The notes beneath the pieces are model-generated. The model did not search any database and was not told where the DNA came from. It saw nothing but the letters and a program-made list of their open reading frames with translations. From positions 3,720,001 to 3,784,000 of the forward strand of contig OX359201.1 of the NCBI GenBank assembly GCA_947172415.1: a DNA stretch of 64,000 nucleotides, in the 5' to 3' direction. Positions within the stretch are counted from its first letter, which is position 1. Every line of letters starts with the position of its first letter. This document shows positions 14,284 to 61,999 of the stretch, one piece after another. A program made the position numbers and the translations under genes. The DNA is from Chondrosia reniformis (Eukaryota; Porifera; Demospongiae; Chondrillida; Chondrillidae).

Positions 14284-14284
14284 A

Positions 14285-30440: not shown

Positions 30441-30516
30441 CGGCTGAACCCATTTCAGATAGCATTGAATACAGATGTAAAGTCCTAGATATATTGACGT
30501 AAGGATGACATTGATG

Positions 30517-36204: not shown

Positions 36205-36309
36205 AGCAAAGAGGAAATACGCTTTTCCCACAGAACGTATCATTACCGCATATACTCGTATAGCGTATAGACTTATTATTGCGCAATTATTGGAAGCAAT
36301 AATAACTTT

Positions 36310-39568: not shown

Positions 39569-41077
39569 TGGTGGAGAGAAGTTAAGAAACTAGGCATTTC
39601 TAGTAAGAATCCACCTGGAGGTTTTGGCAGAGTCTATGATGAGAACGGTGTGGCACGATCTGATGAGGAAGGCAGGAAGGTCTGGAGTGAACACTTCAAG
39701 GAGGTGTTGCAAGGCGGTAAAGAGTCTCCCACTGGTTGCCATGCGTTGAATGGAGATGGCAAGGCTAAAGGGCTCGGTGGGAGTAGTAAGGTTTTGGAGG
39801 ATGAACTCACTCTAGAAGAAGTGATGTGGGCATTGGGTAAAGTAAAGAAAGGGAAGGCAGTTGGCAAAGATGGTATTTCTGTTGAGATGATGAGTGCTGA
39901 GTGTTTAACAGATGTGTGGGCGAAATTGTTTAATGTCTGCTGGAAGTTTGGAGTGGTGCCCTCTTTGTGGAAACATTCAATTATCGTTCCTGTCCCAAAG
40001 AAGAGGGTGAGGGGAGTATGTGACACCAAAATCTTTAGAGGTATATCCCTGACATCCTTGGTTTGCAAGATCTTGTGCATGGTTCTGGACATGCGGCTGA
40101 CTACCTTTTTAGAAACAGAAGGTACCTTGGTTGACGAACAGGGTGGTTTTCGCAGTGGTAGGAATTGTAGGGATCAAATCCTGTCTTTGCTGTTGATTGG
40201 CCAGTCAATGCTGTCAAAGAAGTCAGATGGGATGCTAACAGCTTTTATTGACTTTAAGAAGGCGTATGATCGGGTGAACAGGAAGAAGCTGTGGGGTTGC
40301 TTAGAGGGTTATGGTGTAAATGGGCGCTTCCTCACCTTCTTGAAGAGTTTGTACGGTGGTAGTGTGTCTCAAGTGAGAATTGATGGATGCCTAGGTGAAG
40401 AGTTTAAAGTGACAAAAGGTTTACGGCAGGGGTGTGTGTTATCTCCAGTTCTTTTTTCCTTGTATATCAACGGGTTGGTAACTGAATTAAAGGATAAGGA
40501 TTGTAGGGTGATGTGTGACGAAATTATCGTACCTGGTCTGCTGTTTGCTGATGACACAGCTCTATTGGCTGAGAGTGCAGATGATATGAGGAAGAGTCTC
40601 CAGTGCTTAGAAAGTTGGTGTGAGGAATGGTCCGTTGAGATAAATGTGGAAAAGAGTGCGGTAATGCACATGAGGAAAAGAGGGGTCAATAAGTGTACTG
40701 ATCATTTCAGTATTGGTGAGAAGGAGCTCCCATGGGTGTCTACTTACAAGTACTTGGGCTGTATGGTGGATGACAGTTTGGGCTGCTCAAGTATGGTGGA
40801 GTATCGGGTGGAAATGGGGTCTCAGGAATTAGGTGCTTGGCTGCGGAGGTGTCGGGAGTCAGTTGGGGAGGTGAACGGCAGGTCATTTATGCAGTTGATG
40901 CAGTCACTGGTGGAATCAGTGTTGTTGTATGGGGCAGATATCTGGAGTTGCCATCAGAAGTTAGATGGGTTGAACCAGCTACAATTAAGGGCCCTGAGAA
41001 TCTTCTTTGGGGTGGGTGTGCGCCACCCAAAGGTATCCCTGATGATGCTTTCCCGGTGGTCTGGCTTGCAAGGGTGA
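39569..41077 (+). CDS. LINE reverse transcriptase domain, open frame
   Basis: An uninterrupted frame of about 500 codons runs from the break at 39,569. Motifs: VGKDGISVEMM, WKHSIIVPVPKK (RT1), FRGISLTSLVCKI (RT2), DEQGGFRSGRNCRDQI (RT3), TAFIDFKKAYDRV (RT4, A), GLRQGCVLSPVLFSLYINGL (RT5, B), LLFADDTALL (C, FADD codons 40,544-40,555), WSVEINVEKSAVM and YKYLGCMV. All catalytic aspartates are present. The open frame suggests a young insertion. The internal ATG at 39,650 is only the first methionine, not a native start. The frame ends at a TGA at 41,077 although homology continues in other frames. Confidence 0.85.
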   Translation, partial: WWREVKKLGISSKNPPGGFGRVYDENGVARSDEEGRKVWSEHFKEVLQGGKESPTGCHALNGDGKAKGLGGSSKVLEDELTLEEVMWALGKVKKGKAVGKDGISVEMMSAECLTDVWAKLFNVCWKFGVVPSLWKHSIIVPVPKKRVRGVCDTKIFRGISLTSLVCKILCMVLDMRLTTFLETEGTLVDEQGGFRSGRNCRDQILSLLLIGQSMLSKKSDGMLTAFIDFKKAYDRVNRKKLWGCLEGYGVNGRFLTFLKSLYGGSVSQVRIDGCLGEEFKVTKGLRQGCVLSPVLFSLYINGLVTELKDKDCRVMCDEIIVPGLLFADDTALLAESADDMRKSLQCLESWCEEWSVEINVEKSAVMHMRKRGVNKCTDHFSIGEKELPWVSTYKYLGCMVDDSLGCSSMVEYRVEMGSQELGAWLRRCRESVGEVNGRSFMQLMQSLVESVLLYGADIWSCHQKLDGLNQLQLRALRIFFGVGVRHPKVSLMMLSRWSGLQG

Positions 41078-41735
41078 GATGTGTTACATTCTGGTTGAAG
41101 GTTATGACGAATCCACTGTTTTAAAGGAAGGATTTTGAGGGCAGCAGTGTTGGAGGCGGCTAAGAGTGGTGGAGGATGGATGAAGAATCTGAAAAAATAC
41201 CTGGAATGTTTTAGTTGGTGTGGAATCGGTGCCGAGGAGGTAAATAGGGTTGTCATGTAGAGAAATCACAATGATGTTACAGGCTTGCGCGAGAAGGAAG
41301 GTGGAAGATGAATGGGATGGTGAACTGGTCACAAAACCCAGGTTGGCCTTGTTGAAACTTTTGAAGGAGAAAGGTGGTGAATCTCGATGTTTAGATGTGG
41401 CAGATAAGGGTAAGAGATGGATGATGATGATGATCAGGGGTGGGACAGCCCCACTTAGGATTGAATGTGGAAGGTGGAGGGGTCTTGAGAGAGCGGAGAG
41501 AACATGTGGGGAGTGTGATTTGGGGAAGGTGGAAGATGTGCAACATTGGCTGCTGGAGTGCGAGAGATGGAAGGATGAGCGAGTGGACCTTTTTCAGTCT
41601 TTGTCACGGGTAGCACTGGGGTTTGATTTGATGACTGATGATGATAAACTATTTGCCATTCTGGATCAAGGATGCAAGCATCACTCAATCCTCAAGATTA
41701 TTTTGAAGATGTGGACTGCTAGATTTAGCTGACCT
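41078..41735 (+). pseudogene. LINE C-terminal region with zinc knuckle, frame-shifted
   Basis: Homology continues past the RT stop in two other frames: ILRAAVLEAAKSGGGWMKNL near 41,127-41,240, then the open frame 41,250-41,732. The latter includes RTCGECDLGKVEDVQHWLLEC, a C-x2-C...H-x4-C knuckle typical of the C-terminus of many LINE proteins. It ends MWTARFS. Two frame changes separate this part from the RT domain. Confidence 0.75.
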
Positions 41736-41847
41736 TTTTGATTGATGACTTGATGTTTTGTTGAACTGATTTATTTGTCATAATGTATTGTTGTGTGCCT
41801 CATAGGACAGTCTGTCCTAGTGCTATGCATGTGGCACGTTAAATAAA

Positions 41848-42222
41848 ACAAGTAGTTCGAGTTTAAAAACTCGTGGGGCTGCCGCACCCGAATTATCTCG
41901 AACTACTTGGCCGCATCGTTGGGATTTAATATATATATTCGTAATACTAACGATTGAGGACGCTTAAGTGTCCTGACCTTTATAAATAACGATGGAAAAG
42001 CTTCGTTAACTAAAGCTGCCATTTGCAAAAACGATATATTGACGTATAAATTAAGTGTAACAATAGTTACGTATGAACTCGTATTATACATATATCGACG
42101 TATAAAATAAGTGTTATAATAGTTGTGTATGAACCCGTATTATATATATCTTTCCGTAACATGAAGCCGTACAACGTAATCGGCAAATGAAAACAATATA
42201 AAGGGCTGCCTACTGCAGCCCC
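41848..42222 (+). mobile_element. Hairpin-capped small element, copy 4
   Basis: Complete unit of 375 bp from ACAAGTAGTTCGAG to the hairpin GGGCTGC-CTACT-GCAGCCC (42,203-42,221), followed by CTAA and a TAA microsatellite. It starts directly at the LINE 3' end. It differs from copy 3 at more than a few percent of positions, so the two are not a recent duplication. Confidence 0.75.
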
Positions 42223-42247
42223 TAATAATAATAATAATAATATATAT

Positions 42248-44020
42248 ACAGTACAAGTTACAATATACTAAGGTAATATAATATAATATAAATAAATAAA
42301 TACTAATAATATAAATAATTCATATGGCTCCAGGAAAGGACCTAGCAACAGAATGGGCATAGCATCATATAGTTTAGGGTATAAAACTCATTTAAAATTA
42401 AGGGATTTTTTATTTAGGTCTCAGTTTGGTAGAAAACGGAGGACAAAATCTGCATATAAAATGCCATAGGACTATAGAAAACATATAGGAAATTTATATT
42501 GAAACCAGGTGTTATATTGATAAAAATTATCAATTCGTCAGATCATTGTGAAACCGACATATATCATGGTACATGTGTATGACAAATGTCTGGCGAAGTT
42601 TTGCTTAATTAAAGTTGCAAAATAATCAAGATATAATGAAGAATGCAAGGTTACGATTGGGCAATCTGGTGATGTATTATAATGTTTCTCTAGTGCGCCA
42701 TCAAAACCTTCATATATCGCTCCGTACACATTTAGTGGATTATCATGTGACGTTGGGAAAACATCACCGCCTCGTTGTTACAGAAGATCATCCTTCCGAG
42801 AACGGCTATGACAAGTCGACGCTCTCCTACGAGAAGGAGCTACGGAATAAACGAGTTGTAGCGAAGGTTAGATAAAGCGTATTTGTGTACGTTTCCGTTA
42901 AGTTTGAGGCAGAATTGTCCCTATATTGATGCAAAAGAAATTCGTTTAGTCGACCTTAATAAAACTTTGGTAATTGAAGCTCTGTCTTCTCTTCTTACGC
43001 TTTTTGTTCATATTTTTACTTGTCCATGTGTAGGAATTAGGAGTGTTTGTTGCGATCATTATGAGAATAAAGCCTTGTTGAGCTTCAGGAACACAAATTT
43101 ACTAATTTTCTACTTGATATTCCCATTCCTGTATTACTGATGAAGACTTCCGGGTTGAAACGTCCAGAATTAGTAAATTTATGTTATTGATGTTCAACAA
43201 GGCTTTATTCTTATCCATGTGTATACGTTTTCCATGTGTACAGTAGAATCTCATAACGAAATTGCTCATAGTGAATGTCTTAAGTATAGTGAGGCTAATT
43301 ACACTCAAGTACACTACACAGTGAAAGTTACTGGCAATATTAAAATTACAATCAAGTACTACACAAGGGACATAAAAGGCCAAGGCCTTTATATACGTAT
43401 ATGATGTCCCTTGTGTACAAGTTACAAAATGGTCTCTAACCCTGTTGATTATGCCAATGCATGCAACCAACCGTCGGTGTTCTTAGCTCACTCACAAGGC
43501 AAATCAAATCTGCTCTGGTTATTAGCTGAGACCCCTTTAATACTGGAGCCTTTGTTGATTTATGGCATGCAGATGCATCATCTTCAGTCTATACTAAGGT
43601 GTGAAAAGGTAATTGGTAGGCCATGTGTTCTACCTTGCAATTGGATGATCTGTATCAACTACTACTCTCTATGCAGTAGTTGAGGATTTCAAAGCCTGCA
43701 ACAGTACTAGTGTGACTAAAGTCTTGTACTGTTTAAAATACTGATTATCCTAGGGGTCACTTGGTTCTCTTTAAATTTGTAACTTGCACTGCATGTGTAG
43801 CTAGTACTTGATTGTAATTTTAATATTGTATAGTCACTTGGCCCTCTTAAATTATATATACATATATACATAGGCTTTGAAATTCTCAACTCTACGTATA
43901 CTGCATAGAGAGAAGTAGTTGATACAGATCATCCAATTGCAAGGTAGAACAAATGACCTACCAATTATTTATTTATTTATATTATATTAGATTACCTTAG
44001 TATATTGTAACTTGTACTGT
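42248..44020 (+). mobile_element. Non-autonomous TIR element, 1.77-kb copy
   Basis: Inverted ends of about 55 bp, built around ACAGTACAAGTTACAA (42,248-42,263 and 44,005-44,020), flank blocks A and B. It has no coding capacity that I recognise. The two 1.02-kb copies in the palindrome arms lack about 600 bp of the middle. Inside it, 43,063-43,211 is a second inverted repeat. The right part (43,430-43,850) matches block B of the 8.9-9.35 kb copy, inverted. Superfamily unknown. Confidence 0.7.
43095..43180 (+). ncRNA. Hammerhead-ribozyme-like motif (weak candidate)
   Basis: CTGATGA (43,137-43,143) and GAAACGTC (43,157-43,164) have the order and spacing of a type I hammerhead core. Outer arms AAATTTACTAATT and AATTAGTAAATTT (43,095-43,107 and 43,168-43,180) could pair as stem I. 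Stem II between the cores is poor, with about two or three pairs, so catalytic activity is doubtful. Such motifs occur in Penelope-like and other retroelements; no RT of that type is seen nearby. Confidence 0.3.
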
Positions 44021-44029
44021 ATATATAGG

Positions 44030-44894
44030 TAGGCGAGGCAGAATATGTTGATGAAGGGGTAATTTCTCTATTTATTTATGGTATGACAAGTAGTATATAT
44101 TCTTATTATATTCCCAATTCACATGCATGTGACAGTTAAGGTTAAGCTTTATCTTCATACTTTGTAGTTATACTTCATGGTCCCATGTCATTAAGTTATT
44201 GCATTTGCTCTTGAGTCTTTATTGTAGTTTTGGAATCCTTGCCAGGTTCCAGGGTTTGCGTTCTCCATCATTTTGATGTGATCAGGCTAATGAATGGGTA
44301 TGCAGTATGCGGTTAGCACCTTAACCCCAAAGCTTCTAGGGGTGGTAAATTTATGCTTGAAGTGGTCACCCTCTCACCTGGTAGGTATACGATATAGGCT
44401 GGGAATCTGAGCATGGACACTTCTATAGGCCAGACTCTAGTTATTTCAAGGATGCCTGTTGCTCTCAGGCACAGGGCGTCGTATACATAGGTACATTCAT
44501 ATTGTATGGCCATGCCTAAATAGATCTACAGTCCTTAAAGTATTTGCACCCGGTGCACTTCTCTCATCACATTTGGGAGTATTTTGATAAATAGCATGGC
44601 TGGCTTTAAAGGTAAGGGGTGCACCAGCAATGGCAACTCCTAAAAAACAGTGTCTAGTTTACATACTGCATACCCTGCATGGTCTTCCGCCAGCTCAATG
44701 CATAGATATGCATAGGCTAAAAGGTTTTTCCAACCCTGGTACGTGGCTAGGAAGGTGGAAACAGGTGTGCATTATAGCTTCAAGTTACAGGTCAAGGTAG
44801 GTGTAGGCATTGATAAAGTGGAATACATTAAGTAATAATAATAAGTAAATATCTTACGAAATCGCTAACGTTTTGTAACGCATCACGTGCTGCG
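44030..44894. other. No gene recognised
   Basis: Sequence between the TIR element and the palindrome. No exon or repeat beyond short stretches was identified. Confidence 0.35.
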
Positions 44895-44924
44895 GAACGT
44901 TCCGTACCGTTCCGCATTTTAGTA
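44895..44924 (-). repeat. 30-bp sequence shared with 36,175-36,204
   Basis: Exact inverse of the sequence next to the GTAAAGTTTCCCC motif at 36.2 kb. It contains the palindrome CGGAACGTTCCG when the flanking base is included. It lies within about 10 bp of the left end of the giant palindrome. Confidence 0.75.
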
Positions 44925-44932
44925 GTGTAAAG

Positions 44933-47900
44933 GGGGTAGCGGGGCCATAGCCACTGCTCCAAAAAGTTCTTGCGTAACTGTAATAGAAAAGTATAGGAGG
45001 GATTGCGTAAGAGTAGAGGAGACGTGCGATGATAGGAATGAATGCATCATCCGACGAAGAATCGGAAGTAGTGGGTTATTATATAATAGTGGAAATTATT
45101 GAAATCAAGGTGTAGCGGTTATGTGTGAAATATTGAGTTATCAGGCCGCAATATCTGGTAGAGGCGGGGATTATTCGCCCTCAATTGAATTCTTTAGCAG
45201 CTGAGTTAGTATAGCTTTGTCTAAATATGGAAGGAGATGACCACTGATTGACCTTGCGTACGAGGTGGTGTTTACGGAATGAATTCAGCAGGGTAATGGG
45301 AGGGCTAGTGTATAGAAGAGGGATGTGGATTTGTAGAGTGTAACCGATGGATTGCAGGAGTGTAAGTTTGTAGTTGTCTAGCTAGGTAGAGAAGATGTGA
45401 TTGGGTAAAGGAAAGTGTAGTTTGCTAGACATATGGAGAGAGGAGTGGTATAAGAGGAGAGGGGAGGTAAAGAGCGATGCTAGTATAATTACTAGTAGTT
45501 CTAGTATAAGTAGGCCAGTATAATGCAGACATACATTATGTAAGTATGTAGTGTGTAGGGTTTGTGAACTACAGACTACAGAGAAACTGATTAGCAGTTT
45601 TGGACTCCAGTTGGGTACATATATACATATGCATATGTACAGTATGAGTATAGGATGATTGGGTTGTGGTTCTATTGGTGTAAAATATTTGGTAAGATTA
45701 ATGCAAACAAACATGTTTACCTGGAAACATTATGGTCTAAAACTATGAAATATACAATGAAGTTTCAAACAAACATATTTACCTGGCAACATTGTGGTCT
45801 AAATCAATGAAATATACAATGAAGTTTCAATGACACTAGCTATTTCACTAGAATCCATTTCACAATTTTATAATGATTTACAGATTTTGGTCTGGATTAT
45901 ATATATATTTACAATAAGTTGTTCAGATAAAAAACATCCATAACTGAAATCATGACATGTAAGGTTTTATGTAAAATCTTACAAATCTCATTGTGTACAT
46001 GTTTCATTGTGTAAATCAATTAGCAAGGATAGATAACTTGTCAACATATGAGGTTCAGTTTAGCTTGGGGGTGTCACAGTGTCTAATGTCCACTGATGGA
46101 CACTGCTGTGATGCTTCTAGTCTAGAGTGAAACTCATTATGTTAGGTCTTCTTAGTTAGAGAAGCCAAACAAGATCAGACAGAAGCTGTGGGACAACACA
46201 ATCCAATGGTAGATGTTTTGTACATATATAAATTTGCAACTGTTTTCAATAAGTGAGATTTAGGTTATATAGATAGGGGTTGTCACAGGGTGACTTGCTT
46301 ACCAAAGGAGACTGTTCTGGTGCTGCTATATTAGTATTTTAGAGTGAAACTTATTGCGTTAGATCTTCCTAGTTTAGGACTGGGTTGGCTATCAGTGTTT
46401 GAATCATTTTGTCAATGGCTGAAATATACACACTAAGGGTAAATTTGAATATGCAGTATTATATGATTAATGATGAAATTGTAAAAAGTTACCATTTGTG
46501 GTTAGAAATATGCCTAGAAGTGCATGGCAAAGTGGACAATAGATGTGTTAGATAAAGTAGGAATAAATTTAAACACACAGCAAATCCTTTGAGGATTTGA
46601 GAGCTGAGTGTGATTAAATCCATCGCTATGTGCATTTATGTAAGCAAAAGAGAATCTAAAGTGGGGTAAGCTTGTTGAACTGTGGTATAGCCTTTAAAAA
46701 GCCTGGTAAGTAATGCATGCTCAGCAGAAACAAAAGTTGTGTGATTATTTGTGGGAAAGGTTTCTGCATGTATATAGTTCCCTAAAGGACAAATACAAAT
46801 CCCAAATCTGGCAAATAGCTGGTGATCTGGTTGACAGTAGCTGCATGGGTCATTTGAATGCATGCACCAGTACATTAGCCTCTTATCAGGACTCTTGTAC
46901 ATCTAACTATAAAATCTATGTACGTATGTATATATATATATATATATATTACAATCAAGTACTACACAGTACAAGTTACAAATTTAAGAGGGCCAAGTGA
47001 CTATACAATATTAAAATTACAATCAAGTACTAGCTACACATGCAGTGCAAGTTACAAATTTAAAGAGATCCAAGTGACCCCTAGGATAATCAGTATTTTA
47101 AACAGTACAAGACTTTAGTCACACTAGTACTGTTGCAGGTTTTGAAATCCTCAACTACTGCATAGAGAGTAGTAGTTGATACAGATCATCCAATTGCAAG
47201 GTAGAACACATGGCCTACCAATTACCTTTTCACACCTTAGTATAGACTGAAGATGATGCATCTGCATGCCATATATCAACAAAGGCTCCAGTATTAAAGG
47301 GGTCTCAGCTAATAACCAGAGCAGATTTGATTTGCCTTGTGAGTGAGCTAAGAACACCGACAGTTGGTTGCATGCATTGGCATAATCAACAGGGTTAGAG
47401 ACCATTTTGTAACTTGTACACAAGGGACATAAAAGGCCAAGGCCTTTATATACGTATGTGATGTCGTGACGTTTTCCTAACGTCACACGATAATCCATTA
47501 AATATGTACCGAGCGACATAAGAGGTGTTGGTGACGCACTAGAGAAACATCATAATACATCACCAGATTGCGCAATCGTAACCTTGCATTCTTCATTATA
47601 TCTTGATTGTTTTGCAACTTTAATTAAGCAAAACTTCGCCAGACGTTTGTCATACACATGTACCATGATATATGCCGGTTTCACAGTGATCTGACAAATT
47701 GATAATTTTTATTAATATAACACATGGTTTGAATATATAAATTTTCCATAGGTTTTCTATAGTCCTATGGCATTTTATATGCAGACTTTGTCTTCCGTTT
47801 TCTAACAAACAGAGGCCTAAATAAGAAATCCCTTAATTTAAAACGAGTTTTATACCCTATACTTTATGATGATATGCCCATTCTGTTGCTAGGTCCTTTC

Positions 47901-50797
47901 CTGGAGTCATATGAATTATTTAATTATATTATATTATATTATTTATTTATTTATTTGGATTACCTTAGTATATTGTAACTTGTACTGTATATAGAAAATG
48001 CAACAATCTAGGTATAATCGCTATAGAATCAGTTGATCTTGTATCTTTGATGTGTAATCTATATATTAGCATTTTATCAACTGGAAAATAGTTTGCAATG
48101 TCGTCGAAGAATGCTGATTGTGCTATGACAAGCTGACTAATTCCTCTAACATATCTTTACAGGGCAGAACTGGCATTGTACCACGGTCCGCAATAGTAGA
48201 TCTTCTATCATACGTACGTAACTGAAATTAGGATTCTTTTGCCTACGCACACCTGTCACCATTATATTATTTACAATAACTTTTTAGATAAAAAAACTTC
48301 CGTATTGAAATGACGTGGCGGTTTATGTAAAATCTTACAAACATTTACACTGCAGCTGGTAATGTAAGCAAATTCTTTTGAAACCATTAAACGACTGGCC
48401 CGATTTGCACATGTTCTCGATATGGATATCTAATATTTACAATAACGTGTTTATGTAAAATCTTACAATTTCACAGTAATATCATAGATCTTATATAAGG
48501 TTACGTAAGTATATAAGATCTATGGTAATAATCTACAGTATTACCTTACAGACTAATTGATAGCTACGTAAGCAAATTCTTTTGAAACCACTAATTACAA
48601 TAACTTGTTTATCTAGACGATAGTCCTGTAAACAACTACTAGTGTAAATGAAAATATTTGTAAGATTTTACATAAACATATACGTAAATGTTTGTAAAAT
48701 GTTACATAAAACACTACGTAAAAGTATTACAAAAGTTTACAGGCTAATTGTATTATGCAACTTCACTGCATACTTAAGGGCATTTCGTATAAAATGTTAA
48801 GGAACTAGGGAATAGGTACCCTTCTTTTGGAAAACGATTTGTGTAGAGACAATAACTTATAGAACATGAGACTAGACCAAACTGTTTGTCGCTTTTTGAA
48901 TTAAGTGATCTCAGTTATATCTTTTCTTTTGGTGAAGCAGTAAAAAAGGTTTCAAAACAAATAAGAAAAAAAGTCAATACATGATATTTTAAATGAAATA
49001 AGAAGTATAGTGATTCCAACCATCACTAGCAAATCTCAGACAAGTAAGAACACAATAAGAGGATCATGTGAAAGGGTAACTATACAGAAATTTAAGTGAG
49101 TTAACCACAAATATCACTTTCGCGTTTGGGTGTACCATCACTTTGGTTATACCGATGCTTCCAAAGATGGAAGTGATGTGTATGGTGAAATTACTTTCGT
49201 TTCTTGCAGTATATAATTTGCTACTTAATTCTGTATGGTTATCCTTGTCACATACATGATCCCTTAGTTGTTGCCTATTCGAGATTTGCTAGTGACTATT
49301 AGAAGCAGTTTCATCCCTATTTGCAATTTCATTTTTTAAATGTTTGCATTTTATGACAGATTGACAAATAATAGGCAATATATAAACATAATATATACAT
49401 GCAACATTTATATCTTCTTTTTCACACACATAGAAGGTATATATCTTTTCAGCACCAAGAATTTTCATTTATAACCGATCACGAAAGTGATTAATTTTGG
49501 AGGCACTTATCTTTTGTATCAACACATGACTTTAAACAAATAGTATTAAAGAAATGTCCACTTAGTATTAATATTGGAGGAATATATAAGTGTAAGGTAA
49601 GTCCAAAAAGTGAAGCAGAGGATTTAGAAAACAATTAAAGTATGACACTTCGTCAATCCTTTATTGAAACCCCACCTGCACAAAAAATGAAACACGAAAT
49701 ATATTGTACTGATCAGCAACAATTATATAAGCAAGTAACACCAGTAGAAATCAGATGATTATGGTATAGCTGAACATTAGAATCAAATTTGAAAGAAATC
49801 TCTTTTTCTAAAAAGGAGATATGGTCAATAACGTCATCGGATTTCATACATTCTTAGCAATATGATGTCCAATTTATTTCATTACAACATGCAGATGGCA
49901 TTTTTTACAATTTCTACTTTTGTTTGTCAACACTTATTCATATCATGTTTGTTTTTTTGTTGTCATCTTCTAGCCAAAACTTCACAAAAGTATATGACTC
50001 AATACCTGCCCATCACTGCTGTAATATTTCCAAAAACTGCACTATCACAACAATACTAAGATATAGGTCAATCCAGCTCATTATAAATTCTATCAGCGCT
50101 ATTGGCGCAGCCCTGCCAAAGTGAGTCTACTATATTGCTCAATACCTGACTGTTATTGCTACAATATTTACACAAATTGCACAATCACAACAATACTTAA
50201 GGCATAGGTCAATCCAGCTCATTATAAATTCTATCGGCGCTATCGGCGCAGCTCTGCCAAAAGTGAGCCTACTATATTGCTCAATACCTGACTGTTATTG
50301 ATACAATATATCTACAAATTGCACAATCACAACAATACCTAATGTATAGGTCAATCCAGCTCATTATGAATTCTATTGGCGCAGCTCTGCCAAAAGAAGC
50401 CTACTATATTGCTCAATACCTGCCTGTTATTGCTACAATATTTACACAAATTGCACAATCACAACAATACTTAAGGCATAGGTCAATCCAGCTCATTATA
50501 AATTCTATCAGCGTTATCGGCGCAGCTCTGCCAAAAGTGAGCCTACTATATTGCTCAATACCTGACTGTTATTGATGCAATATTTCCACAAATTGCGCAA
50601 TCACAACAATACCTAATGTATAGGTCAATCCAGCTCATTATGAATTCTATCGGCGCAGCTCTACCAAAAGGAGCCTACTATATTGCTCAATACCTGCCTG
50701 TTAGTGCTACAATATTTACACAAATTGCACAATCAAAACAAAACTTAAGGCATAGGTCAATCCAGCTCATTATAAATTCTCTCGGTGCTATCGGCGC
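44933..50797 (+). repeat. Giant palindrome, left arm
   Basis: The arm pairs with 50,798-56,957. Matched landmarks: GGCCATAGCCACTGCTCC at 44,952 and its inverse at 56,926; the minus-strand frame 45,382-45,714 and the plus-strand frame 56,056-56,457; the 122-codon frames 47,151-47,519 and 54,367-54,735, whose translations are identical; and 48,000-49,550 with 52,339-53,890, nearly identical by eye. Outer parts have more differences and small indels than inner parts. No gene is recognised in either arm. The frames that look open are mirror images and low in complexity. Confidence 0.9.
46966..47988 (-). mobile_element. TIR element copy in the left arm
   Basis: A 1,023-bp copy with ACAGTACAAGTTACAA at 46,966-46,981 and its inverse at 47,973-47,988. 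A TA microsatellite flanks it on the left. Its partner at 53,898-54,920 has exactly the same length. It was therefore probably in place before the palindrome formed. Confidence 0.75.
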
Positions 50798-51240
50798 AGC
50801 TCTGCGCCAATAGAATTTATAATGAGCTGGATTAACCTATACCTTAAGTATTGTTGTGATTTTGCAATTTGTGTAAATATTGTAGCAATAACAGTCAGGT
50901 ATTGAGCAATATAGTAGGCTCACTTTTGGCAGAGCTGCGCCGATAGCGCCGATAGAATTTATAATGAGCTGGATTGACCTATGCCTTAAGTATTGTTTTT
51001 GTAATTGTACAATCGTGGAAATATTGTAGCAATAACAGGCAGGTATTGAACAATATAGTAGACTCACTTTTGGCAGGGCTGCGCCAATAGCGCTGATAGA
51101 ATTTATAATGAGCTGGATTGATCTATGCCTTAAGTATTGTTGTGATTGTGCAATTTTTGGAAATATTACAGCAGTGATGGGCAGGTATTGAGTCATATAT
51201 TTTTGTGAAGTTTTGGCTTGAAGATGCCAACAAAAAACAA
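49975..51240. repeat. Central tandem array of a 131-142-bp repeat, inverted about 50,797
   Basis: About six direct units (TCAATCCAGCTCATTAT at 50,069, 50,210, 50,352, 50,483, 50,625 and 50,756) meet three inverted units (near 50,826, 50,968 and 51,110). Units alternate slightly in length and share ATTGGCGCAGCTCTGCCAAA and TATTGCTCAATACCTG. The switch point is GGCGCAGCTCTGCGCC at 50,789-50,804. Unequal copy number makes the visible centre differ from the geometric one near 50,600. Confidence 0.85.
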
Positions 51241-51653
51241 ACATGATATGAATAAGTGTTGACAAACACAAGTAGAAATTGTAAAAAATGCCATCTGCAT
51301 GTTGTACTTATGAAATAAATTGGACATCATATTGATAAGAATGAATGAAATCCAATGATGTTATTGACCATATCTCCTTTGTAAAAAAAGAGATTTCTTT
51401 CAGCTATATATAATATGATTCTAATGTTCAGCTATACCATAATCATCTGATTTCTACTGGTGTTACTGGCTTATAATTGTTGCTAATCAGTACAATATAG
51501 TTCGCTTTTCATTTTTTGTGCAGGCGGAGTTTTAATAAAGGATTGACGAAGTGTCATATTTTAATTGTTTTCTAAATCCTCTGCTCTACTTTTTGGACTT
51601 ACCTTACACTTGTATATTCCTCCAATATTAATACTAAGTGGACATTTCTTTAA

Positions 51654-52334
51654 GGTGGCGGGGGCACCTTTTCAATTAAAATCACAGAGATATTTACTGC
51701 CCATATAACTTTTGCAGCGTAGGCAGTAGCGACTTCTTACTTTCTCGACGTTTCCTACTATATCTGAACTAGAAGCAGCAGGAGGGCTGCTACTTCGGCT
51801 ACTTGCGATAGCTGAATATAACGTTTTTGCCGCCGCTCACTATAATCGCATTTATTACGCCTATTTCCTCCATATTTGCGGCTATAATCTAGTGCTTTCG
51901 TTTACACGCGTTACTTGACGTAGCACATGTTCGTACGTGAGAATTTGTAATAATTATCAATGTGATGTCCGCAATGGGTTAATTTCATACACATACATGG
52001 GACAGGAAAGCAGTTCATGTGCTTCCTGGTGGAAATCAGGAAATCGCCCACGTACGAACATGTGCTACGTCAAGTAACGCGTGTAAACGAAAGCACTAGA
52101 TTATAGCCGCAAATATGGAGGAAATAGGCGTAATAAATGCGATTATAGTGAGCGGCGGCAAAAACGTTATATTCAGCTATCGCAAGTAGCCGAAGTAGCA
52201 GCCCTCCTGCTGCTTCTAGTTCAGATATAGTAGGAAACGTCGAGAAAGTAAGAAGTCGCTACTGCCTACGCTGCAAAAGTTATATGGGCAGTAAATATCT
52301 CTGTGATTTTAATTGAAAAGGTGCCCCCGCCACC
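51654..52334. mobile_element. 681-bp foldback element with TTAA target duplication
   Basis: Terminal inverted repeats of 286 bp (51,654-51,939 and 52,049-52,334) enclose a 109-bp loop. The ends read GGTGGCGGGGGCACC. TTAA flanks both sides (51,650-51,653 and 52,335-52,338). The left palindrome arm has the same flanks with a single TTAA (49,546-49,549), an empty site. TTAA duplication is the signature of piggyBac-type transposition; the element has no coding capacity and its family is inferred only from the target site. Confidence 0.85.
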
Positions 52335-53897
52335 TTAATACTATTTGTTTAAAGTCATGTGTTGATACAAAAGATAAGTGGCTCCAAAATTAATCACTTT
52401 CGTGATCGGTTATAAATGAAAATTCTTGGTGCTGAAAAGATATACCTTCTATGTGTGTGAAAAAGAAGATATAAATGTTGCATGTATATATTATGTTTAT
52501 ATATTGCCTATTATTTGTCAGTCTGTCATAAAATGCAAACATTTAAAAAATGAAATTGCAAATAGGGATGAAACTGCTTCTAATAGTCACTAGCAAATCT
52601 CGAATAGGCAACAACTAAGGGATCATGTATGTGACAAGGATAACCATACAGAATTAAGTAGCAAATTATATACTGCAAGAAACGAAAGTAATTTCACCAT
52701 ACACATCACTTCCATCTTTGGAAGCATCGGTATAACCAAAGTGATGGTACACCCAAACGCGAAAGTGATATTTGTGGTTAACTCACTTAAATTTCTGTAT
52801 AGTTACCCTTTCACATGATCCTCTTATTGTGTTCTTACTTGTCTGAGATTTGCTAGTGATGGTTGGAATCACTATACTTCTTATTTCATTTAAAATATCA
52901 TGTATTGACTTTTTTTCTTATTTGTTTTGAAACCTTTTTTACTGCTTCACCAAAAGAAAAGATATAACTGAGATCACTTAATTCAAAAAGCGACAAACAG
53001 TTTGGTCTAGTCTCATGTTCTATAAGTTATTGTCTCTACACAAATCGTTTTCCAAAAGAAGGGTACCTATTCCCTAGTTCCTTAACATTTTATACGAAAT
53101 GCCCTTAAGTATGCAGTGAAGTTGCATAATACAATTAGCCTGTAAACTTTTGTAATACTTTTACGTAGTGTTTTATGTAACATTTTACAAACATTTACGT
53201 ATATGTTTATGTAAAATCTTACAAATATTTTCATTTACACTAGTAGTTGTTTACAGGACTATCGTCTAGATAAACAAGTTATTGTAATTAGTGGTTTCAA
53301 AAGAATTTGCTTACGTAGCTATCAATTAGTCTGTAAGGTAATACTGTAGATTATTACCATAGATCTTATATACTTACGTAACCTTATATAAGATCTATGA
53401 TATTACTGTGAAATTGTAAGATTTTACATAAACACGTTATTGTAAATATTAGATATCCATATCGAGAACATGTGCAAATCGGGCCAGTCGTTTAATGGTT
53501 TCAAAAGAATTTGCTTACATTACCAGCTGCAGTGTAAATGTTTGTAAGATTTTACATAAACCGCCACGTCATTTCAATACGGAAGTTTTTTTATCTAAAC
53601 AAGTTATTGTAAATAATATAATGGTGACAGGTGTGCGTAGGCAAAAGAATCCTAATTTCAGTTACGTACGTATGATAGAAGATCTACTATTGCGGCGGAC
53701 CGTGGTACAATGCCAGTTCTGCCCTGTAAAGATATGTTAGAGGAATTAGTCAGCTTGTCATAGCACAATCAGCATTCTTCGACGACATTGCAAACTATTT
53801 TCCAGTTGATAAAATGCTAATATATAGATTACACATCAAAGATACAAGATCAACTGATTCTATAGCGATTATACCTAGATTATTGCATTTTCTATAT

Positions 53898-54920
53898 ACA
53901 GTACAAGTTACAATATACTAAGGTAATCCAAATAAATAAATAAATAATATAATATAATATAATTAAATAATTCATATGACTCCAGGAAAGGACCTAGCAA
54001 CAGAATGGGCATATCATCATAAAGTATAGGGTATAAAACTCGTTTTAAATTAAGGGATTTCTTATTTAGGCCTCTGTTTGTTAGAAAACGGAAGACAAAG
54101 TCTGCATATAAAATGCCATAGGACTATAGAAAACCTATGGAAAATTTATATATTCAAACCATGTGTTATATTAATAAAAATTATCAATTTGTCAGATCAC
54201 TGTGAAACCGGCATATATCATGGTACATGTGTATGACAAACGTCTGGCGAAGTTTTGCTTAATTAAAGTTGCAAAACAATCAAGATATAATGAAGAATGC
54301 AAGGTTACGATTGCGCAATCTGGTGATGTATTATGATGTTTCTCTAGTGCGTCACCAACACCTCTTATGTCGCTCGGTACATATTTAATGGATTATCGTG
54401 TGACGTTAGGAAAACGTCACGACATCACATACGTATATAAAGGCCTTGGCCTTTTATGTCCCTTGTGTACAAGTTACAAAATGGTCTCTAACCCTGTTGA
54501 TTATGCCAATGCATGCAACCAACTGTCGGTGTTCTTAGCTCACTCACAAGGCAAATCAAATCTGCTCTGGTTATTAGCTGAGACCCCTTTAATACTGGAG
54601 CCTTTGTTGATATATGGCATGCAGATGCATCATCTTCAGTCTATACTAAGGTGTGAAAAGGTAATTGGTAGGCCATGTGTTCTACCTTGCAATTGGATGA
54701 TCTGTATCAACTACTACTCTCTATGCAGTAGTTGAGGATTTCAAAACCTGCAACAGTACTAGTGTGACTAAAGTCTTGTACTGTTTAAAATACTGATTAT
54801 CCTAGGGGTCACTTGGATCTCTTTAAATTTGTAACTTGCACTGCATGTGTAGCTAGTACTTGATTGTAATTTTAATATTGTATAGTCACTTGGCCCTCTT
54901 AAATTTGTAACTTGTACTGT
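53898..54920 (+). mobile_element. TIR element copy in the right arm
   Basis: Mirror copy of 46,966-47,988, bounded by ACAGTACAAGTTACAA at 53,898-53,913 and its inverse at 54,905-54,920. Block A comes first, then block B inverted relative to the 8-kb copy. A TA microsatellite flanks it on the right. Confidence 0.75.
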
Positions 54921-54934
54921 GTAGTACTTGATTG

Positions 54935-54969
<35 letters not shown>

Positions 54970-56956
54970 CGTACATAGATTTTATAGTTAGATGTACAAG
55001 AGCCCTGATAAGAGGCCAATGTACTGGTGCATGCATTCAAATGACCCATGCAGCCATGCAGCTACTGGCAACCATATCACCAACTATTTGCCAGATTTGG
55101 GATTTGTGTTTGTCCTTTAGGGAACTACAATGTAACATGCAGAAACCTTTCCCCCAAATAATCACACAACTTTTGTTTCTGCTGAGCATGCATTACTTAC
55201 CAGGCTTTTTAAAGGCTATACCACAGTTCAACAAGCTTACCCCACTTTAGATTCTCTTTTGCTTACATAAATGCATGTAGCGATGGATTTAATCACACTC
55301 AGCTCTCAAATCCTCAAAGGATTTGCTGTGTGTTTAAATTTATTCCTACTTTGTCTAACACATCCATTGTCCACTTTGCCATGCACTTCTAGGCATATTT
55401 CTAACCACAAATGGTAACTTTTTACAATTTCATCATTAATCATATAATACTGCATATTCAAATTTACCCTTAGTGTGTATATTTCAGCCATTGACAAAAT
55501 GATTCAAATACTGATAGCCAACCCAGTCCTAAACTAGGAAGATCTAACGCAATAAGTTTCACTCTAAAATACTATTATAGGAGCACCAGAACAGTCTCCT
55601 TTGGTAAGCAAGTAACACTGTGACAACCCCCATCTAACCTAAATCTCACTTATTGAAAACAGTTGCAAATTTATATATGTACAAAACATCTACCATTGGA
55701 TTGTGTTGTCCCACAGCTTCTATCTGATCTTGTTTGGCTTCTCTAACTAAGAAGACCTAACATAATGAGTTTCACTCTAGACTAGAAGCATCACAGCAGT
55801 GTCCTTCAGTGGACATTCAACACTGTGACACCCCCAAGCTAAACTGAACCTCATATGTTGACAAGGTATCTAGCCTTGCTACTTGATTTACACAATGAAA
55901 CATGTACACAATGAGATTTGTAAGATTTTACATAAAACCTTACATAATTTCAGTTATGGAGGTTTCTTATCTGAACAACTTATATATATAATCCAGACAA
56001 TAATCTGTAAATCATTATAAAATTGCATGTGAAATGGATTCTTGTGAAATAGCTAGTGTCATTGAAACTTCATTGTATATTTCATAGTTTTAGACCACAA
56101 TGTTGCCAGGTAAACATGTTTGTTTGCATTAATCTTACCAAATATTTTACACCAATAGAACCACAACCCAATCATCCTATACGTATACTGTACATATGCA
56201 TATGCATATGTATATATGTACCCAACTGGAGTCCAAAACTGCTAATCAGTTTGTCTGTAGTCTGTAGTTCACAAACCCTACACACTACGTACTTACATAA
56301 TCATGTATGTCTGCATTATACTGGCCTACTTATACTAGTACTACTAGTAATTATACTAGCATCGCTCTTTACCTCCCCTCTCCTCTTATACCACTCCTCT
56401 CCCCATACGTCTAGCAAACTACACTTTCCTTTACCCAATCACATCTTCTCTACCTAGCTAGACAACTACAAACTTACACCCCTGCAATCCATCGGTTACA
56501 CTCTACAAATCCACATCCCTCTTCTATACACTAGCCCTCCCATTACCCTGCTGAATTCATTCCGTAACCACCACCTCGTACGCATATTCTGATTCGACAT
56601 CAAATCACCGTTTCAAGCCAATGGTCTCAATTAAGATCTTTCAAGGTCAATTAGTGGTCATCTCCTTCCATATTTAGACAAAGCTATACTAACTCAGCTA
56701 CTAAAGAATTCAATTGAGGGCGAATAATCCCCGCCTCTACCAGATATCGCGGCCAGATTACCCAATATTTCACACATAGTCGCTACACCTTGAATTCAAT
56801 AATTTCCACTAACCCACTACTTCCGTTTTTTCGTCGAATGACGCATTCATTCCTATCATCGCACGTCTACTCTACTCTTACGCAATCCTTCATATACCTT
56901 TCTATTACAGTTACGCAAGAACTTTTCGGAGCAGTGGCTATGGCCCCACTACCCAC

Positions 56957-57110
56957 TTTTGGCAGAGCTGCGCCGATTTGTAATGAGCTGGATTGACCTA
57001 TACCTTAAGTATTGTTGTGATTATGCAGTTTGTGGAAATATTGTAGCCATAACAGGCAGGTATTATAAAGGGTAACGCCGAAGTAAAGTTTCCCCGTAGT
57101 ATACTACGGA
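56957..57110 (-). repeat. Single central-repeat unit and CCGTAGTATACTACGG motif at the palindrome edge
   Basis: 56,957-57,064 is an inverted unit of the 131-142-bp repeat of the palindrome centre. It is followed by GGGTAACGCCGAAGTAAAGTT and TCCCC running into the 16-bp perfect palindrome CCGTAGTATACTACGG type sequence, to 57,110. This is the inverse of the triple repeat at 30,517-30,628. Confidence 0.7.
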
Positions 57111-57515
57111 ATCGATGTCTTCTTTACGTATATTTATGCATGACCCAGATATAAAGGTTTTATTATGAAAACCTCCCAGTAAAGGACGATTACTTTATAG
57201 TGGACAAGTCCCTAGGCCCTTTGCACCAACTTGTCCGTTATTGAGAGGTTTCACTGTATTAAATTATAGCTTTATAAAGCGATTGGACGTTTCCATATAT
57301 ATACGGACGAACTACCCTTTAGTAGCTTTAACATCTAAACCTATAAAATAGGATGAAACGTATCCACTTCAGTGGCCCTTTAATCTATTAATTAATCGCG
57401 ACCACCTTCCAAATGATAGCAACCGCTGCCAAATGATCGAAACCACCTGATGGAATGGACATTGTGGCAGGCATTATTAACCCTCTGCGCAGGGTTAAGT
57501 GTTTGGCTATGTCCA

Positions 57516-57540
57516 TGTGTGTGTGTGTGTGTGTGTGTGT
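57516..57540. repeat. (TG)n microsatellite
   Basis: Twelve and a half TG dinucleotides. The stretch 57,120-58,600 around it holds no clear gene. A minus-strand piece at 58,175-58,307 (KKKTKTSQDDEGLNSQKQLA) after a CATTCACAG acceptor is only a possible exon. Confidence 0.85.
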
Positions 57541-58629
57541 ATTTGCCACTTGCTAATCTGTGCAGAAAGCTTCCTGCAGCCAGCTTTTCGCATGTACAAG
57601 TTGTTAAACGAGCCCGCTCCTTTCGTCTAGTCCTAGAAGAATGTTTATCGCAGGTTTTCCGCTTACCGATTTCACTGATGCCCATGTGGACTATATACAC
57701 TCTCGCGAGCACACCACGATTTCTACTGGCTTTGGCGTGCACATCTCCTTCTACTCTGAGTAGTGCAACTGTGGTATAACTGCACAGCAGCACACAGGGT
57801 ATGCGTTCTGCGAACGTCTAGTTTTAAGACGCTCAAATGTCTTCTTGATTGGCTAAGGAGTGACTGCCTCCACTTCAAAAGTGTTATCAGTGCCAAAATT
57901 GGGTGATTACGTTCAGACAGCTAAGTATAAGAAAAACTTTAAGGGAAGATCACATAAGTTATGAATTATATTTTCACACCCAATAAAAATGCAGTTGCCA
58001 TATATCTGTTAAAAAGAGCCAATCCCTTTAATGCCTCCCAGTTAACATAGACCTGATGTACCTTTTGAGGCAGCTAAGACCACCTTGACGTTTACATATG
58101 AACATGCATGATATACCATTTTCCTACATGTTATGCCTATTCTGTAAGAGCCAAAGGGCAACTAAACCTGAAGAGAGCTTTGGATGAAAATACAGGAGTC
58201 TTTTCTTTCTTTCATCTTCTTCTCCACTGGTTCAGCCAGCTGTTTCTGGGAATTCAATCCTTCATCATCCTGGGAAGTCTTAGTCTTTTTCTTTATCATG
58301 ATCTTCTGTGAATGGCTATTAGTTACATATAATAGTTCATTCGTTTTCCCCTGATTAATTAGAATAGATGCCACTACTGAATTCAGAAAGATGTATTAAA
58401 ATACATCATTCTTGTTTGAGAACTTCTTTTTCTTATTTATGGTACACATATTCTTAATCATAAATCTGGAATCTATTTAATTTTATCCTTGAAGGGTTTT
58501 GTAACCTTCTCTTTATATATAATGGTACTAACAGTACTATTACTATGATTATACTGAAATTCAATTAAAGTTAATTCAGCTCAAACACCGCTACTGTGTA
58601 AATTGAAGTAGAATGTAAATAATGTAAGG

Positions 58630-59960
58630 TTAAGGATAAGTTGAATAATAACTTGGATCAACAATCACTGGGAAGGAATCTTCACTATGGACAAACATTT
58701 GCTTAGGCTGCAGTTGGGGAAGTCTGGGATCTACCTGAACTACTGCATTTCCACTAGATATAGCCTAAATCAAGAGAATAGACAACGTAGAATTAGACAC
58801 AGCTGGAAATGTAATATTTTACTACCGTGATTTAAGATTCATATGTAAACAGTTAGTAACATACAGTTCTGATTGCTACATATAATCTATCTGTCCAGGT
58901 CTGATTAAAACATCACTCAATTCCTACTGTAAATTTACTAAGATCATTCACTTACAAGGACTGACTGTTGATAGACAGGCTCCACATGTGCTGTACCACT
59001 TGCTCCTAAAAACAGATGACCTACTGGTCTTTGTGCATACGAATGCACCCCAGAAATATGGCCTTGCAGATGTAAATGTAATGGAGTAACATTGACATGT
59101 GTTTTTGGTACTTGGTCTGTTATTGCAGTATGTGAATACAGACCTACTGAATTACCAATAGTTCCATTGGCTGATGTTGGCACAGCTGTGTTAGACAAGC
59201 CTGTGGCAAGCATTTGCTGAAGGTTTTGCTCTAAAAGTTCCAATCTTCTTTCCTTTATATGCAGGGCTTCAGCCTTCTCTTGCAAAAGCATTTCATTCTG
59301 AACTAGTGTGCTATCAGCAGTACAGCTTTTTTCCACGTGATATTGTTGTTTCGGAATAAAGTGAGTGGCTCCTTCACATAGAATTTGATGCTGAACAGGT
59401 TTTATGTTCTGTTGGCTAATGCAACTGCTACTGTATGTGCCATCTACAGATGGCTTCTTCACTATCTTACCACGATTATCAGTTTCAGATGGACTATCAT
59501 CAGAAACACCCTGGAGAGGTATTTTACAATGTAAGTGGTTGTTGTAGCAATAAAATATATGTATATACATTACCTGAACATCAGTGGCAAAACCCACTGA
59601 ACTACAACTGCCTCCAGTCCTAAGCGAAGCCTGACTACTACAACCCCTGGAAGCTATGCAGACATTGTGTTTGGAAATGTGTCCAATCTGATGAGTATCT
59701 TCAGTAAGGTAATGAAGATATTTGGTGTGGCCATCATCTGTTAGCATTTTGCTTCCACTGATGTTTGCTTCACCAAATTTGTTCTCATTTTGAAAAACAC
59801 CTTCCGCATAGGCTCCACCATGTGAATTAACTGTATAGTTTGGTAACTTTACTGATGACAAGGTAAGTGGATTCATGTCTGGGGTCAATGTTCTGTCAGC
59901 ACTCTGTGATCGTAAAGGACTAACAGCTTTCTGTTTTCCTCTCTGTTTCTGCCCAGCCAT
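58630..59960 (-). CDS. Three-exon host gene, unknown function
   Basis: Exons 59,574-59,960, 58,956-59,510 and 58,630-58,764 join in phase 0 to a 358-residue protein. Borders are clean: GTAATG..CTCCAG (63-bp intron) and GTAAGT..TGATTTAG (191 bp). The start MAGQKQRGKQKAVSPL is chosen because it is the first methionine after a likely acceptor at 59,971. The N-terminal part is basic and serine-rich. The middle has a short coiled coil, LVQNEMLLQEKAEALHIKER and ELLEQNLQQML. The C-terminus ends PVIVDPSYYSTYP. No catalytic domain, signal peptide or membrane segment is seen. An upstream non-coding or coding exon may exist beyond 59,971. I do not recognise the family. Confidence 0.65.
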
Positions 59961-60689
59961 AAAACGATACCTAAGAGGGGTAAGGTTTTCAGGTAAATAA
60001 GTTGACATATACAATGAGATAAAGAAATAAACCAGTGATATTCTGTAGCTGAAGGCTATAGTCAGGAATATATACAGAAAAATCATGACAACTTCTTGGG
60101 ACAGATTCCTTACAGACGAGACTATGATTACAAAATAAGAGAATAAATGTCAGTATATTAATAAACGTTAACATAATAATCTGTATATAAAAATGTTTTG
60201 CATAAAGGACTGAATGCTAGTGTAGTCAGTCCTAGATTAAGCTATAACGGAACTGTAACCAATTATCTATGTGGCCGGGTACTGTCTCGAACATTCTATA
60301 ATGTATATATAGTGCTTGTACCCTGTATTGTAGTTGTTCCTATTATAATTGCAAAAAGTGATCTTGAGTCAATCCGTGTGGCATTCGTGACAACTTTTGT
60401 ACTATTTCTAACAGTGACAGCTGATGGAAGTCGAGACCATACACACGATTACACAAGCCTCCCTTAATTTAACAAAATTGACATTACATGATTTGATAGG
60501 AGATTTTTGGTCCCCATAAAAGCTTATATCATCGTATATATCCACAATTTTGGGCTAGTCTACAATGGATGTTATCTTAAAATCTGAAGGACAATGAATT
60601 TAAAATAAATTTCCTGAAATTATCTAAGTCTAGGTCTTCCTGTGGGTGTGAGTTCCTGGGCACGCTCCTCTGTAAAATAGATCACTCAC

Positions 60690-61460
60690 CAACCTGTCTC
60701 CCACACTTAACATACTTATCCATCACTTTTCTTTGTTGCACCTTCTCTAACACACCTGTCTGACCTAGTTCTTTTATAACATCATCAAATCTTACCATTT
60801 GAGTAGCCTGTATCGTGACCACCTGTCTCTTTTGCGGGACACAGGTCCTATACGTCAATGTTTGTGCTACCATTGCATTATAAATCTTCAGTTTGTTCCT
60901 TAACTTAACTTGCTCCTATCAATGGCTGATGTTTTCATTGCTTCCATTATTCACTTAGTAATACGTATTCTGTAGTCAATTTTCTTGTCCTTTCTTCCAT
61001 CCTCCTGTTCCACTACCTCACAATTGATTTACATGTTACCAACAGTTCTCTTCTGCTAACCTACTCTCAACACAAGAATTTCCCCAGTTAACCTTCATAC
61101 CCAAAACATCAGCTTTTCATCTAGCACCCAGAACCCTAATGTTGTACTGCAAAGTTTCTCGGTGATAATATCATCTGCAAAGAGCGATACATGGGTCTCA
61201 CTAGGTGACCGTGCTACTGATTTAAGAGCCAAGGTGAGACTGTATGACACAGCTGTACCCATTTCTTTATTGGAGAACTATGGGATAACCAGTCATCTAT
61301 CCTGAACCTAGATATTCATCCTTTGCAGAGTTGTCATCATCATGTCTCCAATAAAATATTCAGCCTTTCCGTAATAAATTTCTTTGTACCATATCTTAGG
61401 CTTTTATGCCTATAAAGGCCACATACACCTGCCCATTATTTTCAGTTGCCTTCTACATAC
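60690..61460 (-). pseudogene. LINE reverse transcriptase fragment
   Basis: Minus-strand pieces read QVYVAFIGIKA (motif A region), VSLFADDIITEKL (motif C, FADD at 61,170-61,181), then FWVLDEKLMFW, and at 60,682-60,873 the C-terminal AQTLTYRTCVPQKRQVVTIQ and VIKELGQTGVLEKVQQR. The last part resembles the LLYGAE..RLQATQM..VRxDDIRKELG tail of invertebrate endonuclease-RT proteins. Many stops and shifts are present. It is a different lineage from the 9.4-13.1 kb LINE. Confidence 0.65.
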
Positions 61461-61689
61461 ACAGCTTGAATGGAAAATCTATTCAATACATCCTTTTCCT
61501 CTACTAAAACCATCTTGTTCCTTCTTTCATTTTGTTACCAGTTGTGGTCCTCTATAATGCTCAATAAGCTGATCTCTGTAAGGTTGCAGGTTAGTGGAAA
61601 CCTGCAAGCTAACACTAGTAACTTAAAAAGGTATTCCAGACTTTATTGATGATATCTATGTTTGATTCCTGTAGTGGCTAAGATTCTTT

Positions 61690-61990
61690 AATAGTTAGCC
61701 CATTTTCATGAGGCTCCGACTGGGTTCAAACCAAATTATACAACTCAAGATGTCCTTGTGGCAGGCATTAGGTGTAGACATTATTTGATACGATCTGTCA
61801 TGGTCGACCAGAGCAAAGCTTCTGATACAGTCAGTCACTCTATTCTGCATAAGAAGCTGTTTTGTTATGGAGTGTAATTTGGTGAAATCTGTTGCTTTGA
61901 CAGTTCATTCAATGGTAGTAAACAGTGGTGTGTTTAAAAGGTGTGCAATATGCCTTGAGTGACATCAGAAGAGGATATCCACAGGGGACA
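61690..61990 (+). pseudogene. L2/CR1-like LINE RT fragment
   Basis: Plus strand reads GFKPNYTTQDVLVAGI, then SVMVDQSKASDTVSHSILHK and GEICCFDSSFNGSKQWCV. This matches the RT of the LINE at 11,690-11,960 (GFRPNHTTQDILVSMI, FDMISHSILLKK). It is short and interrupted. Confidence 0.75.
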
Positions 61991-61999
61991 ATTATATGA

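What the first reader, a model, noticed from the sequence alone, without database searches (positions are those of the whole stretch)
44933..56957. A 12-kb near-symmetric palindrome
Seen: two inverted arms of roughly 5.9 and 6.2 kb with almost no loop and almost equal length (4,614 versus 4,621 bp from the TTAA site outward). Such a structure is unstable in most cloning hosts and rare in genomes. It may be a foldback element, a product of inverted duplication (breakage and hairpin repair), a junction of two inverted sister copies, or an assembly artefact that mirrored reads.
Basis: seen in the sequence. Interest (0 to 1): 0.8.

Follow-up and report, generated by a model that had tools for sequence, protein, structure and literature searches.

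The report
Genuine 12-kb non-coding DNA palindrome
A stretch of what looks like eukaryotic DNA carries its own mirror image, probably made when a copied strand folded back on itself; the two halves have since drifted apart except for one block that looks recently re-matched, which makes it a tidy example of a known kind of event.

Summary
The palindrome is in the sequence: 44929-50800 mirrors 50801-56959. Its centre is GGCGCAG-CT-CTGCGCC (2-nt loop), where a ~142-bp tandem array flips strand (6 units on +, 3 on -). Eight left-arm ORFs of 70 aa or more gave no Pfam match. The window looks eukaryotic; no genome is held.

Arm identity comes in blocks from outside in: 93.7, 97.3, 99.89 (3 substitutions in 2,656 columns), 94.3 and 94.9%. 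Evenly scattered differences did not produce such a block in 2,000 simulations. This fits one recent arm-to-arm gene conversion. Its inner edge lies ~40 bp from a 681-bp element that sits between two TTAA copies in the right arm only; the left arm keeps a single TTAA. Divergence, one-arm insertion and unlike outer flanks speak against a mirrored-read artefact.

Best explanation: an inverted duplication started by fold-back priming (or fork template switching) at a 4-bp stem, GCAG-NN-CTGC, native to 7 of 8 non-central repeat copies. This start is only suggestive: about 5% of array positions offer such a stem, and it is shorter than stems documented in yeast. Rivals: sister-end fusion, a foldback transposon (no target-site duplication found), or two haplotypes misjoined by assembly. 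No reads, relatives or other genomic copies could be checked. New member of a known kind.

The parts
44929..50800 (+). left arm of the palindrome (5,872 bp)
50801..56959 (-). right arm of the palindrome (6,159 bp), mirror of the left
50793..50808 (.). centre of symmetry GGCGCAG-CT-CTGCGCC, 7-bp stem and 2-nt loop
49991..50805 (+). tandem array of ~142/132-bp units U1-U6 (left half)
50804..51200 (-). tandem array of the same units V3-V1, opposite strand (right half)
56956..57064 (-). R0: extra unit of the same repeat (about 85% identity) just outside the right arm, overlapping its end by about 4 bp; absent outside the left arm
46929..49586 (+). near-identical tract in the left arm (3 substitutions in 2,656 aligned columns, 3 small indels, plus the TTAA insertion opposite): proposed gene-conversion tract
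51613..54957 (-). the same tract in the right arm (includes the inserted element)
51650..52338 (.). 681-bp element (51654-52334) with perfect 286-bp terminal inverted repeats and 109-bp middle, between two TTAA copies; right arm only
49546..49549 (.). single TTAA in the left arm at the mirrored place (unoccupied site)
46934..47993 (+). dispersed repeat pieces within the arm, with copies at 42243-43853 (99.1% over 450 bp, 90.6% over ~530 bp), 8006-9349 and 16773-17058

Best explanation
A non-coding inverted duplication. A DNA end or stalled strand inside a tandem array folded on a short stem native to the repeat unit (GCAG-NN-CTGC), was extended back along its own ~6-kb template to make the mirror arm, and the new end was joined to unrelated sequence at the outer end of the arm. 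The arms then diverged by substitutions, small indels and array length change. A TTAA-targeting inverted-repeat element entered the right arm, and one recent arm-to-arm gene conversion re-matched about 2.65 kb, ending close to that element. Shown: the structure, the closed 2-nt centre, the native stem, the blockwise divergence, the one-arm insertion with its unoccupied mirror site. Inferred: fold-back as the start, which arm is the original, the order of events, gene conversion as the cause of the identical block.
For: Centre GGCGCAG-CT-CTGCGCC; the 10-base motif GCAG-NN-CTGC occurs in 7 of 8 non-central units counting R0, missing in U5. Left and right array units pair in mirror order: U1/V_51106 0.93 with next best 0.84 for V and 0.81 for U; U2/V_50962 0.96, only just above U2/U4 0.95. 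Outer flanks are unlike: right flank against left flank gives 3 matches, all to one short repeat at 30489-30625, none beside 44929. Identity by block 93.7/97.3/99.89/94.3/94.9%; a run of 2,432 columns with 3 or fewer differences was reached in 0 of 2,000 uniform simulations; tract against outer block P 1.3e-15, against inner block 5.2e-18. TTAA on both sides of the element, one TTAA in the left arm. Fold-back at short inverted repeats making palindromes is shown in yeast (PMC10622511 and PMC7999016, passages seen).
Against: In the left array 4.8% of positions end a 4-bp stem with a 2-6-nt loop and 9.1% with a 2-12-nt loop, so the stem at the junction could be chance. The native stem (4 bp, 2 nt) is shorter than the yeast cases in the passages seen (5-9 bp with 3-12-nt spacers; 5-6 bp with 40-80 bp for ODIRA). 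The central pair U6/V_50820 (0.90) is not a reciprocal best match: V_50820 is nearest U2 (0.91) and U6 nearest U4 (0.91). No single-arm locus, reads or relatives were available. The uniform null ignores local variation in mutation rate, and selection on the identical block is not excluded. The inner tract edge near the element and the outer edge near an AT repeat may be coincidences.
Confidence: 0.5

Rival explanations
1. Fusion of two broken sister chromatids (breakage-fusion) within the array: the same inverted duplication, without fold-back priming; the short stem is incidental to the repeat unit.
For: Needs no stem; gives a nearly spacer-free centre; about 5-9% of array positions have such a stem anyway. 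A passage in PMC10622511 says sister fusion is likely to contribute in human cells.
Against: The strand flip falls exactly at the end of a native stem with a 2-nt loop.
Confidence: 0.2
2. A foldback-type transposon: two very long terminal inverted repeats with internal tandem repeats and no middle, moved by a transposase elsewhere, like Tetris or Galileo.
For: Long inverted arms with ~142-bp tandem units inside, no recognised genes, sharp ends; Tetris has the same layout with ~220-bp units and repeats also found outside the element (PMC4079207 passages). R0 lies just outside the right end.
Against: No target-site duplication: exact direct repeats of 5 or more bases between 44905-44935 and 56950-56990 gave one 5-mer, 20 bp outside the right end. 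The flanks are unequal (R0 on the right only). No other copy of the arm in the window beyond its nested repeats and one 63-bp match. Arms are several times longer than Tetris arms (up to 1,735 bp).
Confidence: 0.15
3. Assembly product: two diverged haplotypes of one locus joined head to head.
For: 2-6% divergence with an identical block and an insertion in one copy is also what two alleles look like. Bdelloid rotifer palindromes of one assembly were not seen in a close relative, and erroneous scaffolding is named as a source of false palindromes (passages of PMC5916493 and PMC7953838).
Against: The mirror stops at both outer ends and the flanks beyond are unlike; the join is base-precise at a 16-bp palindrome within the array, without Ns.
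Confidence: 0.13
4. A hairpin read artefact (both strands of one molecule read in sequence).
For: Nearly loop-free inverted copy.
Against: 89 substitutions and 20 gap openings between the arms over 44929-49990, a 681-bp insertion with TTAA copies in one arm, unlike outer flanks.
Confidence: 0.02

Closest known systems
Inverted duplications by fold-back priming in yeast (PMC10622511, passages; PMC7999016, passages)
   Same: Large palindrome closing at a short native inverted repeat, outer end joined elsewhere.
   Different: Native stem here 4 bp with 2-nt loop, shorter than the 5-9 bp / 3-12 nt cited; event old enough to have diverged; initiating lesion unknown.
ODIRA inverted triplications (PMC10766186, passages; PMC4689423, search listing only)
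   Same: Template switching at short inverted repeats, with later rearrangement of the unstable palindrome.
   Different: Two copies here, not three; loop 2 nt instead of 40-80 bp; no origin known.
Foldback transposons Tetris (PMC4079207, passages) and Galileo (PMC4168063, PMC3573991, search listing only)
   Same: Long inverted arms containing tandem repeats, no coding capacity in the copy.
   Different: No target-site duplication found, much longer arms, array at the very centre, copy number unknown.
Gene-converting palindromes of mammalian X and Y chromosomes (PMC8981503, passages)
   Same: Arm-to-arm identity kept by gene conversion, here in one 2.65-kb tract.
   Different: Arms of 6 kb and 98.2% identical over 44929-49990, not above 99%; no spacer; no recognised genes.

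Membership tests
Fold-back / template-switch inverted duplication | Closes at a short inverted repeat already present in the parent sequence | tested here: met
   GCAG-NN-CTGC in 7 of 8 non-central units; background 4.8% of array positions, so weak
Fold-back / template-switch inverted duplication | Stem and spacer within the documented range (5-9 bp, 3-12 nt) | tested here: not met
   native stem 4 bp, 2 nt
Fold-back / template-switch inverted duplication | Mirror ends abruptly against unlike flanks | tested here: met
Fold-back / template-switch inverted duplication | Single-arm parental locus in relatives | not testable with these tools
   no eukaryotic genomes held
Foldback transposon | Target-site duplication at the ends | tested here: not met
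   exact repeats of 5+ bases only
Foldback transposon | Internal tandem repeats in long terminal inverted repeats | tested here: met
Foldback transposon | Several copies in the genome | not testable with these tools
   no genome held; viral and prokaryote collections gave 0 matches, which says nothing about the source genome
Gene-converting palindrome | Arm-to-arm identity far above that expected from age, in tracts | tested here: met
   99.89% in 2,656 columns between blocks of 97.3 and 94.3%; 0 of 2,000 simulations
Gene-converting palindrome | Multi-copy genes in the arms | tested here: not met
   8 of 8 left-arm ORFs of 70+ aa without a Pfam match at E 0.05; spliced genes with short exons could be missed
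TTAA-targeting inverted-repeat element (nested) | TTAA duplicated on insertion, terminal inverted repeats | tested here: met
   TTAA at 51650-51653 and 52335-52338, single at 49546-49549; 286-bp perfect inverted repeats

The most novel reading that the evidence does not exclude
The locus is a founder of a satellite-seeding foldback family: a repeat unit whose own short stem repeatedly primes inverted duplication, spreading ~6-kb mirror arms that keep themselves alike by gene conversion and, if transcribed, would give long double-stranded RNA. The extra repeat unit outside the right arm would be a trace of such rounds.
Probability: 0.08. Interest if true: 0.6.

Novelty: new member of a known kind. 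Interest (0 to 1): 0.3.

Why it matters
If real, it is a natural palindrome in which origin, ageing and repair can be read from one sequence: a base-precise centre at a very short stem, a one-arm insertion that orders events, and a sharp conversion tract ending beside that insertion. It would support fold-back at stems of only 4 bp in a natural genome and the idea that a heterologous insertion stops an arm-to-arm conversion. None of this is a new kind of system.

Tried and rejected
Mirrored reads: rejected as above. Target-site duplications at the outer ends: one 5-mer only, not at both borders. Copies elsewhere: patterns from the repeat unit, the arm end and the TTAA element gave 0 matches in viral contigs and genome contigs; the reverse transcriptase as a protein found no confirmed relative in viral contigs (5 stretches matched a pattern, 0 confirmed). 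These collections hold no eukaryotes as such, so the zeros say little. No Rfam family at gathering score and no tRNA in the window. Two literature searches gave nothing: sponge plus palindrome terms (0 papers) and misassembly terms (0 papers). A guess from memory that the source is a sponge could not be tested and is not relied on.

Full report
What was claimed and what is there. Self-BLAST confirms inverted pairs covering 44929-50390 and 50796-56959. The centre is at 50800|50801 in GGCGCAG-CT-CTGCGCC, giving arms of 5,872 and 6,159 bp. The length difference comes mainly from a 685-bp insertion in the right arm and 423 bp of additional tandem units in the left.

Setting. The window is 64 kb at 36.7% G+C, without tRNAs or Rfam matches, and with only 10 ORFs of 150 aa or more. 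It has a reverse transcriptase ORF nearest R2 and LINE-1 proteins among solved structures and separate helicase pieces nearest RecQ-type helicases. This looks eukaryotic; the species is unknown and no genome is held. The arms carry no recognised gene: all 8 left-arm ORFs of 70 aa or more listed had no Pfam match at E 0.05 (2, 6), nor had a 156-aa ORF across the right array.

The centre. Each arm ends in the same ~142-bp tandem repeat: six anchors on the + strand and three on the - strand. A further unit, R0, lies just outside the right arm (56956-57064, about 85% identity) and none outside the left. The motif GCAG-NN-CTGC, a 4-bp stem with a 2-nt loop, is native to 7 of 8 non-central units and missing in U5. 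The strand flips directly after this stem. That is what fold-back priming predicts, but 4.8% of positions in the left array end a 4-bp stem with a 2-6-nt loop, and 9.1% with a 2-12-nt loop. Unit pairing is mirror-ordered for U1/V_51106 (0.93) and, narrowly, U2/V_50962 (0.96 against 0.95 for U2/U4); the central pair is not reciprocal best. The central 300 nt can form a strong hairpin.

The outer ends. Arm homology starts at 44929 and 56959 and overlaps the end of R0 by about 4 bp (AAAG). Beyond it the flanks differ: a comparison of 57065-64000 with 1-44928 gave 3 matches, all to a short repeat at 30489-30625. The left flank just before the arm (44891-44924) is a piece of another short repeat with a copy at 36175-36208. 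No target-site duplication was found (exact repeats of 5 or more bases).

Divergence in blocks. On one MAFFT alignment identity over ungapped columns is 93.7% (44929-45254), 97.3% (45255-46928), 99.89% (46929-49586; 3 substitutions, 3 small indels and the large insertion), 94.3% (49587-49990) and 94.9% (49991-50382). Over 44929-49990 there are 89 substitutions and 20 gap openings in 4,967 columns (98.2%). The outermost and innermost blocks also differ more than the 45255-46928 block (P 0.003 and 0.004). A recent gene conversion of the middle of the arms is the simplest reading; uneven mutation or selection is not excluded.

The inserted element. The right arm holds a 681-bp element (51654-52334) with perfect 286-bp terminal inverted repeats and a 109-bp middle, between two TTAA copies; the left arm has one TTAA (49546-49549) at the mirrored place. 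So the insertion came after the duplication. That the tract's inner edge (49586/49587) lies about 40 bp away suggests, but does not show, that the insertion was already there and stopped the conversion. TTAA preference is recalled as typical of piggyBac and Kolobok elements; no call tested this family assignment.

Nested repeats. Inside both arms 46934-47993 belongs to dispersed repeats with other copies at 42243-43853, 8006-9349 and 16773-17058. These are not further copies of the arm.

Interpretation. An inverted duplication begun in the array is best supported (fold-back 0.5, sister fusion 0.2). The native stem is shorter than those in the yeast passages seen, which weighs against the fold-back detail. 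A foldback transposon (0.15) has the right layout (compare Tetris) but fails the one membership test that could be made at the ends. A haplotype misjoin (0.13) needs reads to exclude; palindromes in some assemblies are suspected of that. In the springtail Folsomia, palindromic blocks showed a wide range of Ks, so concerted evolution is not general.

Novelty. All parts have known parallels. I made no systematic search for a published report of this locus, since its species is unknown.

Noticed in passing
39245-42153: Reverse transcriptase ORF (39545-41077; Pfam RVT_1, nearest R2/LINE-1 structures) between two ~310-bp direct repeats of 86% identity (39245-39565, 41846-42153); a further copy of that repeat at 14802-15118.
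   Followed up: partly
42243-44025: Inverted copy of the arm's nested repeat with mosaic identity: 99.1% over 450 bp beside 90.6% over ~530 bp, with about 640 bp between, and a second short inverted copy at 43872-43967.
   Followed up: partly
11498-12058: Second, partial reverse transcriptase ORF (RVT_1); a weak PHD-finger match below cut-off at 9842-10345.
   Followed up: no
33831-34980 (-): Two pieces of a RecQ-type helicase (DEAD and Helicase_C) on one strand, probably exons.
   Followed up: partly
483-1103 (-): PIF1-like helicase fragment.
   Followed up: no
31170-32159 (-): 330-aa ORF with a weak MULE transposase match below the curated cut-off; no solved-structure match.
   Followed up: partly
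58947-60149 (-): 401-aa open frame without Pfam (E 0.05) or solved-structure (E 0.1) match.
   Followed up: partly
27972-28693: Separate ~160-bp tandem array of 4.6 copies, about 75% alike.
   Followed up: no
7733-7975 and 13044-14664: AT-rich ~21-bp minisatellite family at two places.
   Followed up: no
30489-30625 and 57065-57137: Short repeat containing GGGGAAACTTTAC, tandem at the first place, single beside the right flank of the palindrome; the same phrase also near 36175.
   Followed up: no
16094-16235: A ~145-bp self-inverse stretch, 80% identical to its own reverse complement.
   Followed up: no
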